NCBI GenBank assembly: GCA_014534235.1
Contig: JACVRW010000017.1
Coordinates: 1-39,371 of the forward strand
Length of the DNA stretch: 39,371 nucleotides
Reading direction: 5' to 3'
From: Thermoleophilaceae bacterium
Lineage (GTDB): Bacteria > Actinomycetota > Thermoleophilia > Solirubrobacterales > Thermoleophilaceae
Part shown: piece after piece, positions 16,322 through 36,772 of the stretch
Layout of the letters: each line of letters begins with the position of its first letter
Numbering within the stretch: position 1 is the first letter of the stretch
Made by a program: the position numbers and the translations under genes
Notes under the pieces: generated by a model
Database searches by the model: none
Seen by the model: the letters and a program-made list of their open reading frames with translations, nothing else
Told to the model about the DNA's origin: nothing

Positions 16322-17385
16322 GCGGGCGCTCCGAGCAGGACCCGGTCTATCCGCGGCGTCCCGCTGTCGCCCAACCACAGCACCGTGCCGGGCAGGTAGG
16401 GGCTCCGCTCGTTTGCGCGGACGAAGGCCGGCTCGTGGTACCAGTTGCCGCTGTTCCAGAGGCGAATCCCCGACGGGCTCCTCCACTCGGCCGGATCGTC
16501 CTCCCGCAGCGGGCCCGGCCGGTGCGTGTGGCCGAACACCACGTGGTTCGCGTCCGGGGCGAGCGCCTCGGCCACGCGTCCCATCGCGAGCAGCCCCGAG
16601 CGCCGCAGTTCCTCCCCGCTGAGCTCGGCCTTGAAGGGCCCTAGCCGGAGGCGGTTGAGCGCGGCCACGCCGCCCGGGATCGCCAGCCGGCCGAGCACAA
16701 GCCGGCCGAGTCCGGCGTCGCCGTTGACTCTCTGCCAGACGCTGCGCGACGCACGCCCGCCGCGGTCGAGGACCGTGGGCGCGGCGCCCTGCGCCAGCCC
16801 AGCGAGGAAGGCGTACATCGGCGCCAGCGCGCTCTCGTAGTCGGCGGCGCTGGCACAGTCGCGACCGCGCCCGGTGAGCCGCCCCATCACGGCGGCGCCG
16901 ATCGACTCCAGCCGAGGGACGGTCAGGTGCAGGTCGAGATAGTGGCCATGGGTGGCGTAGACGTCGCGGCGCAGCCGGATCCCGGGGTAGGCGAGCGTGA
17001 CCTCGGCGTCCGGCATCCAGGCCGCGATCCGCCCGGCGACGCCGTCGCCCGCTTCCACCGGCCACTCCGACTCCGGCTCGAGCGCCGTCCCCTCCAGCCG
17101 TAGCCGCGAAAGCCACGGCTCGGCGAGGGCGTGGTCGTGATTTCCGGGGACGAGCACGACGCGCCGCCCGGTGGTCGCCACGCCGAGCGCCTCGAAGAAC
17201 GGCCGCACGAGCTCGAGCAGGTGTGCGAGCGGCCGCTGGCGGACCTCCAACGCGTCGCCCAGCAGCACGATCCGGTCGGCCCCCGAGAGCGCCTCCATCA
17301 GACGCCCGCGCGGGATGTCCCCGCGCGCCACGTCGGAACCGGCGAGAGCCCCGAGGTGGAGGTCGGAGACGACCGCCGTGAGCAT
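16318..17385 (-). CDS. Calcineurin-like metallophosphoesterase
   Basis: A 355-aa metallophosphoesterase with all five family motifs: DLH in VVSDLHLGALAG, GDALE, GNHDHALAEPW, THGHYLDLHL and GHTHRPG. It binds two metal ions and hydrolyses phosphomono- or phosphodiesters; the substrate cannot be deduced. The central insert of about 120 residues (VPRLESIGAAVMGRLTGRGR onward) is longer than in the simplest members and carries some hydrophobic segments, which could attach it to the membrane. ATG 17385 begins directly at the first strand. It is convergent with topB and shares the tetranucleotide CTAG (16318-16321) for both stop codons. No operon partner is visible. Confidence 0.85.
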   Translation of the reverse strand: MLTAVVSDLHLGALAGSDVARGDIPRGRLMEALSGADRIVLLGDALEVRQRPLAHLLELVRPFFEALGVATTGRRVVLVPGNHDHALAEPWLSRLRLEGTALEPESEWPVEAGDGVAGRIAAWMPDAEVTLAYPGIRLRRDVYATHGHYLDLHLTVPRLESIGAAVMGRLTGRGRDCASAADYESALAPMYAFLAGLAQGAAPTVLDRGGRASRSVWQRVNGDAGLGRLVLGRLAIPGGVAALNRLRLGPFKAELSGEELRRSGLLAMGRVAEALAPDANHVVFGHTHRPGPLREDDPAEWRSPSGIRLWNSGNWYHEPAFVRANERSPYLPGTVLWLGDSGTPRIDRVLLGAPA

Positions 17386-34653: not shown

Positions 34654-35625
34654 ATGCGGGCCGCACCCGAGAAGCTCCTGCTGGCTGCGCCGCGCGGGTA
34701 TTGCGCGGGCGTCGATCGCGCCGTTCAGACCGTGGAGCACGCGCTCGAGCTCCACGGTCCGCCGGTCTACGTGCGCAAGGAGATCGTGCACAACAAGCAC
34801 GTTGTGGAGCAGCTCCGGGCACGCGGCGCGGTGTTCGTGGAGGAGGAGACCGAGGTGCCCGAGGGCGAGACCGTGATCTTCTCCGCGCACGGTGTCTCCC
34901 CTGCGGTGCACGCCAATGCAGAGATGCGGCGGCTGAAGACGATCGACGCGACCTGCCCGCTCGTCACGAAGGTCCATGTGGAGGCCAGGAAGTTCGCCGC
35001 TGAGGGGTACACGATCGTGCTGGTCGGGCATCAGGGTCACGAGGAGGTCGAGGGGACGATGGGCGAGGCGCCCGAGCACTTCTCCCTGATCGAGACCGAG
35101 GACGACGTGGAGGAACTCGAGGTGGACGATCCGGACAGGGTGGCCTACCTGACGCAGACGACGCTGTCGGTCGACGAGACCGACCGCATCATCCGCCGCC
35201 TCCGTGAGCGCTTCCCCAACATCGCAGGGCCCAAGTCCGACGACATCTGCTACGCGACCACCAACCGCCAGCTCGCCGTGCGCCAGATGGCCCGGGAGTG
35301 CGACCTCGTGCTCGTCATTGGCTCACGCAACTCTTCGAATTCGAACCGGCTGGTGGAGGTCGCACGCGACCACGGCGCCGACTCGTACCTGATCGACAAC
35401 GAGTCGCAGGTAAGCGACGAGTGGCTGGAGGGCAAGCGTGTCGTGGGCATCACCTCCGGGGCGAGCGCTCCAGAGGAGCTCGTGCAGCGGCTCGTCGACT
35501 TCTTCCGCGCGCGGGGGACCGAGCAGGTCTCCGAGTTCGAGGTGGTACAGGAGGACGTCCGGTTCATGCTCCCGAAGGAGATCAGGCAGGCCCTGGCCAC
35601 GCGTTCGCTCCCGGTCGCCGGGTAG
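34654..35625 (+). CDS. ispH: 4-hydroxy-3-methylbut-2-enyl diphosphate reductase
   Basis: IspH (LytB), last enzyme of the MEP (non-mevalonate) isoprenoid pathway, converts HMBPP to IPP and DMAPP using a [4Fe-4S] cluster. The three cluster cysteines are C17 ([16 protein letters not shown]), C101 ([15 protein letters not shown]) and C199 ([16 protein letters not shown]). Other conserved pieces are [57 protein letters not shown] and [14 protein letters not shown]. The length of 323 aa is normal. ATG 34654 fits the family start. It is a single gene here; the rest of the MEP pathway is not in the window. Assignment is firm. Confidence 0.97.
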
Positions 35626-35651: not shown

Positions 35652-36428
35652 CTACTTCCGCGGCGGCAGCGGCGTGAACTGCACGCCGTGTAGCCGGAGG
35701 CCCGGAGAGCCGGCCTCCACGACGCCCTCCGCCTCGTAGAGCCCAGGCTCGACGTTGGCGCCCGACAGCACCGCGAACGCGCCGCCGGCCGTGTAGGTGA
35801 AGCGGGCGGCCGCCCCCGCATCGGCGGCCTCGATCCAGTCCTCGCCGTCGCTCCAGTCGCGCACCAGCTCGAGCCGCCCACGGTCGCGCGGCAGCGCTAT
35901 GTCGGCGGTCTGGGGCTCGAGCAGCACGCCCGGCGCGTCCTCCGGACGCAGCGGTTCGAGCGGGTCCATCCGTCGGCCGACGCACTCCTGGATCGCGCGC
36001 TCCGTGTCCAGGTACTCCCCCTCGCCGTAGTGCACGAAGCGCAACAGTCCCTTCCGGTCGAACAGGTATCGCCCCGGCCAGCCCCGATTGCCGTAGAGAC
36101 GCCACACCACGAAGTCCGGGTCGAGCAGCACGGGATAGGCGATCTCGAGCCGATCCACCGCCCGCGCCACGACATCGCGGTCCCGTCCGAACGAGTAGCC
36201 GGGCGAGTGGACCGCGACCACGCGCAGTCCCGCGTCGGAGTAGCGCTCGTGCCACGCCTTCAGGTAAGGCATCGTGCGGAGTGAGTTCACCCGGGCGAAG
36301 TCCCAGAACTCGACCAGTACCGCGCCGCGTCCCATGAGCGTGTTCATTCGCAGGAAGGCGACGTTCAGCCACTCCAGGCGCGCGGGGAACTCGGGAGCGT
36401 AGATGTCGGCGTCCTCGGGGGGGCGCAT
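35652..36428 (-). CDS. Cysteine-less thioredoxin-like protein (DipZ/TlpA type)
   Basis: A 258-aa protein with a thioredoxin-like fold of the DipZ/TlpA group and a C-terminal beta domain of the Thioredoxin_10 type. Family pieces are RGAVLVEFWDFARVNSLRTM, YLKAWHERYSDAGLRVVAVH, PGYSFGRDRDV, YPVLLDPDFVVWRLYGNRGW, PGRYLFDRKGLLRFVHYGEG and VLLEPQTADIALPRDRGRLE. Where relatives carry the redox-active CxxC (as in CINCIRT), this protein has R46-V-N-S49, so both active-site cysteines are missing. It has no signal peptide, so it would be cytoplasmic unless a start is misplaced. It must therefore act as a binding or structural protein, not as a disulphide reductase. ATG 36428 is used. Confidence 0.78.
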   Translation of the reverse strand: MRPPEDADIYAPEFPARLEWLNVAFLRMNTLMGRGAVLVEFWDFARVNSLRTMPYLKAWHERYSDAGLRVVAVHSPGYSFGRDRDVVARAVDRLEIAYPVLLDPDFVVWRLYGNRGWPGRYLFDRKGLLRFVHYGEGEYLDTERAIQECVGRRMDPLEPLRPEDAPGVLLEPQTADIALPRDRGRLELVRDWSDGEDWIEAADAGAAARFTYTAGGAFAVLSGANVEPGLYEAEGVVEAGSPGLRLHGVQFTPLPPRK

Positions 36429-36493: not shown

Positions 36494-36772
36494 ATGATGG
36501 CCTGCCTCGTCGTCCTGCTGGCGCTGATCTCGCCGCGGCTTGCGTTGATCGCGGTCGGGCTCTTCACCGACGTGCTGAGCGATGCGTTCGGCAGCTGGGT
36601 CGTCCCCCTGCTCGGGTTCTTCTTGCTGCCGTGGACGACCCTCGCCTACGCCGTCATGTGGGCGGCCGGGTCGAACACCGTCTACGGCTTCGAGTGGTTC
36701 ATCGTGATCCTGGCCTTCGTGGTCGACCTCGGATCGTGGGTCGGCGGGGGCCGCGGGCGCGGACGCGACTGA
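36494..36772 (+). CDS. Small conserved-type membrane protein
   Basis: A 92-aa hydrophobic protein with about three membrane helices: MMACLVVLLALISPRLALIA, the middle VVPLLGFFLLPWTTLAYAVM and GFEWFIVILAFVVDLGS. A short basic, glycine-rich cytoplasmic tail ends in GGGRGRGRD. The pattern LLGFFLLPWTTLAYAVMW recurs in small actinobacterial membrane proteins that I cannot name or assign a role. No metal or active-site motif. ATG 36494 starts with MM; the second Met is also possible. It ends 3 nt before the end of the convergent quinone oxidoreductase gene. It probably stands alone. Confidence 0.75.
   Translation: MMACLVVLLALISPRLALIAVGLFTDVLSDAFGSWVVPLLGFFLLPWTTLAYAVMWAAGSNTVYGFEWFIVILAFVVDLGSWVGGGRGRGRD

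What the first reader, a model, noticed from the sequence alone, without database searches (positions are those of the whole stretch)
35652..36428. Thioredoxin-fold protein with both active-site cysteines lost
The CxxC site is RVNS while all flanking family residues are kept, including the C-terminal sandwich domain. The fold is maintained without redox chemistry, which suggests a scaffold or ligand-sensing role.
Basis: partly seen in the sequence, partly recalled or inferred. Interest (0 to 1): 0.5.

Follow-up and report, generated by a model that had tools for sequence, protein, structure and literature searches.

The report
Thioredoxin-fold protein without redox cysteines
One order of bacteria keeps a two-domain thioredoxin-like protein whose two working cysteines were replaced long ago by a largely fixed new set of residues, which points to a binding rather than a redox job, possibly near iron-sulfur cluster assembly.

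Summary
The 258-aa minus-strand ORF at 35652-36428 has RVNS (aa 46-49) where its nearest solved relative, M. tuberculosis DipZ, has CINC. Its confident model (pLDDT 96.5) matches both domains of the DipZ C-terminal module (Z 26.3 over 246 residues). It is not a recent loss or an error. Of 61 genomes (own plus 60 relatives), 58 carry the ortholog. None of the 58 has CxxC, 56 have Ser at the second position, 46 have Arg at the first, and 58 have a new acid at residue 43, where all 22 DipZ-type comparison rows have Thr. The group is one branch (support 100/100), under purifying selection (dN/dS 0.13-0.27), shows no signal peptide by hydropathy, and in the samples searched was found only in this order of Thermoleophilia. 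Two single-contig genomes show no DipZ beside it. The gene converges with ispH across the order and is last in a suf iron-sulfur operon in one Solirubrobacteraceae-type clade. My reading: a cytosolic redox-dead binding module, tentatively linked to Fe-S/sulfur metabolism. It is a new variant of a known kind; its function is untested.

The parts
35652..36428 (-). gene of the redox-dead DipZ-type thioredoxin-fold protein (258 aa, stop codon 35652-35654)
35970..36428 (-). thioredoxin domain, about aa 1-153
36282..36293 (-). RVNS (aa 46-49) in place of the catalytic CxxC
36300..36302 (-). D43, family-specific acid (D/E in 58 of 58; Thr in 22 of 22 comparison rows)
36075..36080 (-). W117-P118, retained cis-Pro position of the thioredoxin fold (cis geometry assumed from the fold, not measured)
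35655..35936 (-). C-terminal beta-sandwich domain, about aa 165-258 (DipZ second domain / Thioredoxin_10 type)
34654..35625 (+). ispH (LytB, Fe-S enzyme of isoprenoid synthesis), convergent neighbour kept across the order

Best explanation
This is a standalone, probably cytosolic copy of the C-terminal module of DipZ (thioredoxin domain plus sandwich domain). It has lost its CxxC and is kept as a non-catalytic binding protein. Shown here: the predicted fold, the absence of CxxC in all 58 sampled orthologs, one branch in the tree, purifying selection, the replacement quartet E40-D43-R46-S49 in 46 of 58, and no hydrophobic signal or membrane segment. Inferred from the tree: a single loss at or before the base of the order. 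Inferred: the old active-site groove (N-terminus of helix 1 plus the cis-Pro loop) still binds a partner or ligand, with the polar/charged set in place of the nucleophilic thiol. It would therefore hold a client without forming a mixed disulfide, as an adaptor or holdase. Inferred more weakly: the partner belongs to Fe-S/sulfur metabolism (SUF machinery or an Fe-S client such as IspH). My odds: redox-inactive conserved binding module about 0.85; Fe-S/sulfur partner about 0.3.
For: No CxxC in 58 orthologs; S49 in 56 of 58, acid at 43 in 58 of 58, W117-P118 in 58 of 58; no conserved Cys column. One branch, support 100/100, against 22 DipZ-type rows, 21 of them CxxC. In the 72-row alignment E40, D43 and R46 are invariant (this set is biased). 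dN/dS 0.13-0.27 in 9 pairs. Model pLDDT 96.5; Z 26.3 to DipZ over 246 residues. Highest mean hydropathy of any 19-residue stretch among the 58 proteins is 1.59. Neighbourhood: ispH downstream and convergent in 55 of 63 loci with at least 3 kb of downstream DNA and in 10 of 11 loci of family f3; SufB hit ending 11-253 nt upstream on the same strand in 12 of 54 Solirubrobacteraceae-type loci, with a SUFBD-SufS-SufU-SUFBD gene order supported by Pfam in two of these; a SufB-like hit (49-58% identity, tblastn only) within 7 kb upstream, same strand, in 8 of 11 f3 loci. An ordinary thioredoxin, TrxB, is reported to interact with the SufU homologue Rv1465 in M. tuberculosis (PMC10371808, one passage).
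Against: No binding partner is shown. The whole locus is broadly syntenic: neighbours with no Fe-S role that I know of are kept too (WS/DGAT in 46 of 80 loci, M28 peptidase in 24 of 80), so ispH next door proves little. ispH is convergent, hence not co-transcribed. The 12 tight sufB cases lie in one clade of 13 (SH-aLRT 84) and may be a single event. In the window's own group SufB was seen upstream on the same strand in only 4 of 23 loci, 2.6-4.7 kb away, and once on the other strand (12 of the 23 had about 5 kb upstream). In the window's own genome suf lies on another contig, and in a single-contig relative it is about 410 kb away. R46 is not universal: family f3 has Q/E/H/D there.
Confidence: 0.5

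Rival explanations
1. A new non-thiol enzyme: E40, D43, R46, S49 with H74 at the old active site form a hydrolytic, transferase or anion-binding catalytic centre.
For: E40-D43-R46-S49 occurs as a set in 46 of 58; D/E43 in 58 of 58, S49 in 56 of 58 and H74 in 54 of 58. By topology of the secondary structure, 43-49, 74 and 117-118 should lie at the same edge of the sheet (inference).
Against: H74 is kept in 22 of 22 comparison rows too, so it is not new; R46 is Q/E/H/D and E40 is His or Ala in the 12 f3 rows, unusual for a catalytic set. Pfam and NCBIfam show only thioredoxin-fold families. No coordinates were available to measure distances.
Confidence: 0.15
2. A monothiol or persulfide carrier: in Solirubrobacteraceae-type members a Cys directly before the motif (FWDFCRxNS) receives sulfur from SufS/SufU or binds a cluster.
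For: Cys45 in 54 of 54 Solirubrobacteraceae-type loci of the named set; suf, or ThiS-like and ThiF-rhodanese genes, lie upstream in part of them.
Against: In the less biased sample Cys45 is in 8 of 12 f2 members and 8 of 58 overall; the window's group has Ala in 23 of 23. It cannot be the function shared by the family.
Confidence: 0.1
3. A decaying or recently damaged gene.
For: Loss of both catalytic cysteines.
Against: 58 of 61 genomes carry it, with no stop inside any of the matches (two of the frames, L034 and L058, are cut by contig ends); dN/dS 0.13-0.27; S49 and D/E43 nearly fixed.
Confidence: 0.01
4. A regulator or decoy partner of the CxxC DipZ paralog in the same cells.
For: 26 of the 58 genomes also show a match in a frame of 489-695 aa; the motif was read in 8 such frames (L063-L070), all CxxC, one of them from a genome without the family gene.
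Against: Two single-contig genomes (G005, G047; 95 and 97% complete) hold the family gene and no second match at E<=0.001. DipZ's thioredoxin domain is extracytoplasmic (recalled), whereas these proteins show no export signal.
Confidence: 0.07

Closest known systems
DipZ (Rv2874) C-terminal module, PDB 2hyx/5cyy
   Same: Both domains, order and fold; alignment over 246 residues at Z 26.3, 26% identity
   Different: No CxxC, no long N-terminal membrane part and no export signal (DipZ's CcdA part is recalled), shorter second domain
TlpA/ResA-type thiol-disulfide oxidoreductases (NCBIfam PRK03147.1; YkuV 2b5x)
   Same: Thioredoxin domain; weak profile and sequence hits
   Different: Catalytic CxxC absent; curated cut-off not reached (38.9 of 170 bits)
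SOQ1 and NHLRC2 thioredoxin-like domains (7djj/7djk, 6gc1)
   Same: Next-best sequence and structure matches after DipZ
   Different: NHL repeats in those proteins (NHLRC2 by its record title, SOQ1 recalled); CINC in 7djj and 6gc1, while 7djk is a mutated form with SINS (alignments, title)
CxxC-less DipZ-like domain of Clostridium butyricum GH126 proteins (PMC7479077, passages read)
   Same: A DipZ-type thioredoxin fold in which the Cys-Ile-Asn-Cys motif has no counterpart
   Different: N-terminal domain of GH126 family proteins in Firmicutes; not shown there to be an order-wide conserved family
CnoX chaperedoxins (PMC6282202, abstract and outline read)
   Same: Precedent for a thioredoxin-fold protein with holdase function; analogue of the proposed way of working
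   Different: Thioredoxin plus TPR (recalled); a different family; abstract describes redox properties as well

Membership tests
DipZ C-terminal module | thioredoxin domain followed by beta-sandwich domain | tested here: met
   (predicted model)
DipZ C-terminal module | CxxC active site (CINC) | tested here: not met
   RVNS in the window; 0 of 58 orthologs with CxxC
DipZ C-terminal module | fusion to a CcdA-like membrane domain (feature recalled) | tested here: not met
   258-aa ORF, open frame 303 aa, starts at the thioredoxin domain; no hydrophobic segment in the 58 proteins
TlpA/ResA thiol-disulfide oxidoreductase | curated profile score reached | tested here: not met
   NF002854 38.9 bits against cut-off 170
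AhpC-TSA (Pfam superfamily level) | gathering score | tested here: met
   26.3 bits against 26, marginal
Thioredoxin_10 (PF17991) C-terminal domain | profile match | tested here: inconclusive
   7 of 30 family members at E<=0.01, not the window protein
SUF Fe-S assembly component | encoded directly behind suf genes | tested here: inconclusive
   12 of 54 Solirubrobacteraceae-type loci; not in the window's genome
SUF Fe-S assembly component | physical or functional interaction with SUF proteins | not testable with these tools
   needs experiment
CnoX-like holdase | chaperone activity | not testable with these tools
   needs experiment

The most novel reading that the evidence does not exclude
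This order of Thermoleophilia turned a DipZ-type thioredoxin module into a thiol-free accessory factor of SUF-dependent Fe-S cluster assembly or Fe-S client maturation (IspH), using a charged E-D-R-S site where the redox cysteines were.
Probability: 0.25. Interest if true: 0.65.

Novelty: new variant of a known kind. Interest (0 to 1): 0.4.

Why it matters
Thioredoxin folds without their cysteines are known as single cases; here most sampled genomes of an order keep one under strong constraint with a largely fixed replacement site. That gives a clean case for asking what the fold does when it cannot do redox chemistry. If the suf/ispH association is functional, it would add an unknown accessory factor to Fe-S assembly in a little-studied branch of Actinobacteria that has cultured members (Conexibacter, Solirubrobacter records).

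Tried and rejected
Recent loss or sequencing error: rejected (58 of 61 genomes, none of the 58 with CxxC). Of the 106 rows, 70 places were fetched; the other 36 (mostly DipZ-length frames and weak matches) were not, so the motif of many DipZ-type frames was not read. The 3 genomes of 61 without a family gene are G006 and G028 (only DipZ-type matches) and G031; G031 also shows no ispH match, so its locus is probably missing from the assembly. One family row (L058) is only 125 aa and one (L034) lacks its N-terminus, both at contig ends.

The 80 of 80 Arg count is biased: one of its two search patterns required R or Q at the first position and Ser at the second, and only the best 80 of 172 relatives were kept; part of the 80 are the same contigs as. 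I therefore rest motif counts on the 58. The labels f1, f4 and 'Solirubrobacteraceae-type' for the 80 loci are my own; the split 26 versus 54 is one branch in the tree. Pfam and NCBIfam gave only superfamily-level hits. Louvain clustering of flanking ORFs was spoilt by shadow ORFs in this GC-rich DNA and was replaced by tblastn with chosen neighbours. One of the 22 comparison rows (L057) has CINW, not CxxC. In 7 genomes of the class outside the order no relative lies within about 1.5 kb of ispH. The class and phylum searches scored at most 21 and 8 candidates per genome, so absence outside the order is good but not complete. The own genome has 14 AhpC-TSA matches, which I did not examine one by one.

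Literature: the listed titles of six searches (several lists capped, e.g. 10 of 74 and 10 of 134) show no paper on this family. Read: passages of PMC6544083, PMC7479077 and PMC10371808, and the abstract and outline of PMC6282202. Signature proteins in PMC6544083 are listed by accession and I did not compare their sequences, so this protein may be among them.

Full report
What is there. The minus-strand ORF 35652-36428 encodes 258 aa starting at ATG. RVNS occupies residues 46-49 (codons at 36282-36293, read). The best solved relatives by sequence are M. tuberculosis DipZ chains 2hyx and 5cyy (E 7.3e-29 and 7.7e-29), whose CINC lies opposite RVNS. Pfam gives only a marginal AhpC-TSA match (26.3 bits against 26) and NCBIfam a weak ResA-like match far below its cut-off.

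It is a conserved family, not a lesion. Of 61 genomes (the window's own and 60 relatives), 60 have some match to the protein. I fetched 70 of the 106 matching places, translated them and separated orthologs (245-293 aa apart from two cut by contig ends) from DipZ-like and short CxxC proteins. Fifty-eight of the 61 genomes carry the ortholog. In these 58, CxxC occurs in none; position 46 is R in 46, Q in 8, E in 2, H in 1, D in 1; position 49 is S in 56, G in 1, C in 1; position 43 is D in 53 and E in 5. In the 22 comparison rows position 43 is T in all, position 46 C in all, position 49 C in 21 and W in 1. The quartet E40-D43-R46-S49 occurs as such in 46 of 58; the other 12 rows, family f3, have H or A at 40 and Q, E, H or D at 46. 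No cysteine is conserved: the most frequent column holds 11 of 58. Nine close pairs give dN/dS of 0.13 to 0.27.

One branch. A tree of the thioredoxin domains (91 rows) puts the 69 family rows on one branch with support 100/100 against the 22 DipZ-type rows, and the subclades follow the taxonomic families f1-f4 (root at the midpoint). In a sample of 119 genomes of the class, the 22 best matches, each over the whole model at E 3e-69 or better, are all from the same order; matches from other families of the class are at best 4.8e-54 and lie in long, DipZ-like frames. In 296 genomes of the phylum, the only match under 1e-50 outside the order is a 232-aa frame with CVNC. A scan of named genomes kept the best 80 of 172 relatives, with titles such as Thermoleophilaceae, Solirubrobacteraceae, Solirubrobacterales, Conexibacter and Solirubrobacter (part of them are the contigs). 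All 80 have R at 46, 75 have S, 4 N and 1 C at 49; this count is biased because a search pattern contained the motif. One hit is titled Actinomycetospora but sits inside the Solirubrobacteraceae-type clade. The order's name, Solirubrobacterales in the GTDB sense, is my inference from these titles.

Structure. AlphaFold2 with 72 aligned sequences gave mean pLDDT 96.5, pTM 0.92. Foldseek ranks the DipZ C-terminal module first. VIA-align gives Z 26.3, rmsd 2.3 over 246 residues of the model's 1-252, so both domains are matched. Seven of 30 family members are matched by Pfam Thioredoxin_10, the second domain of the two DipZ-like proteins scanned. No stretch looks like a signal peptide or membrane helix (highest mean hydropathy over 19 residues 1.59 in 58 proteins).

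Neighbourhood. In the window, ispH converges on the gene with 26 bases between the two ORFs. Among the 80 named loci ispH is found in 59, always convergent; among the 63 with at least 3 kb downstream, in 55. In family f3 it is present in 10 of 11 loci. Downstream of the gene, 47 of 54 Solirubrobacteraceae-type loci carry a metallophosphoesterase-like gene (Pfam in two loci). Upstream on the same strand, a SufB hit ends 11-253 nt before the start in 12 of 54 Solirubrobacteraceae-type loci. In L136 and L144 Pfam supports the order SUFBD - class-V aminotransferase (SufS) - NifU_N (SufU) - SUFBD - this gene, with 13-15 nt between the last SUFBD gene and this one (starts chosen by me). I call the first SUFBD gene sufD and the second sufB because a SufB query matches them at about 23-25% and 86-93% identity. 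In the two f4 loci with enough upstream DNA, sufB is followed by a SpoIIM-like gene and then this gene (the SpoIIM-like gene was checked by Pfam in L093). In 8 of 11 f3 loci a SufB-like hit lies within 7 kb upstream on the same strand (49-58% identity, no Pfam check). In the window's own group f1 it was seen on the same strand in 4 of 23 loci, 2.6-4.7 kb upstream, and once on the other strand.

Against a functional reading of this: WS/DGAT (46 of 80) and M28 (24 of 80) genes, with no Fe-S role that I know of, are kept too; the tight sufB cases fall in a clade of 13 rows, 12 of them adjacent (SH-aLRT 84); and suf is elsewhere in G000, G005 and G054. Part of the Solirubrobacteraceae-type loci have a ThiF-rhodanese gene (24 of 54), a ThiS-like gene (19) and a cysteine-synthase-like gene (15) upstream on the other strand (Pfam in L102 for the first two; the synthase name rests on recognising the sequence).

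How it most likely works. The fold, the cis-Pro position and the sandwich domain are kept while the thiol chemistry is gone and a new charged set is fixed at the same place. The simplest reading is a binding module: the old substrate groove holds a partner or ligand without a covalent step. No export signal is seen, so the place of action should be the cytosol, unlike DipZ (recalled). A role tied to DipZ is unlikely, since two single-contig genomes (G005, G047) show the family gene as their only match, although 26 of the 58 genomes do have a second match in a DipZ-length frame. The suf/ispH surroundings suggest Fe-S or sulfur metabolism, but general synteny could explain them; I give this about 0.3. 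A lead from elsewhere: M. tuberculosis TrxB is reported to interact with the SufU homologue Rv1465 (PMC10371808, one passage).

Compared with what is known. By descent it belongs beside the DipZ C-terminal module but fails two of its defining features (CxxC, membrane fusion), so it should not be called DipZ or an oxidoreductase. A precedent for a DipZ-like domain without the motif exists (C. butyricum GH126 proteins, PMC7479077, passages read), and CnoX (PMC6282202, abstract) shows that a thioredoxin-fold protein can act as a holdase. I therefore rate it a new variant of a known kind.

Noticed in passing
L136:198-5753 and L144:538-5741 (+): suf gene order sufD-sufS-sufU-sufB with the CxxC-less thioredoxin-fold gene behind it, 13-15 nt after sufB.
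   Followed up: yes
L102:23-1487 (-) and similar loci: A ThiF-rhodanese gene lies upstream of the family gene on the other strand in 24 of 54 Solirubrobacteraceae-type loci, a ThiS-like gene in 19 and a cysteine-synthase-like gene in 15.
   Followed up: partly
L057 (G038:C8, about 16600-17350, -): A separate DipZ-like protein with CINW instead of CINC, i.e. another cysteine loss in the wider family.
   Followed up: no
L110, L112, L114, L115: These Solirubrobacter records have RVNN, with Asn instead of Ser at the second position (L122, S. soli, has RVNS).
   Followed up: no
Solirubrobacteraceae-type loci such as L102:5001-5756: A Cys directly before the motif (FWDFCRxNS) is in 54 of 54 named loci of this type, and Ala in 23 of 23 of the window's group.
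   Followed up: partly
window 36494-36772 (+): Small 92-aa hydrophobic-looking ORF, divergent from the gene, without Pfam match.
   Followed up: no
L200 (G054 ispH): The ispH match in G054 contains one TAG stop in frame.
   Followed up: no
L108: A record titled Actinomycetospora carries a family member nested among Solirubrobacteraceae-type sequences; possible mislabelled or mixed MAG contig.
   Followed up: no
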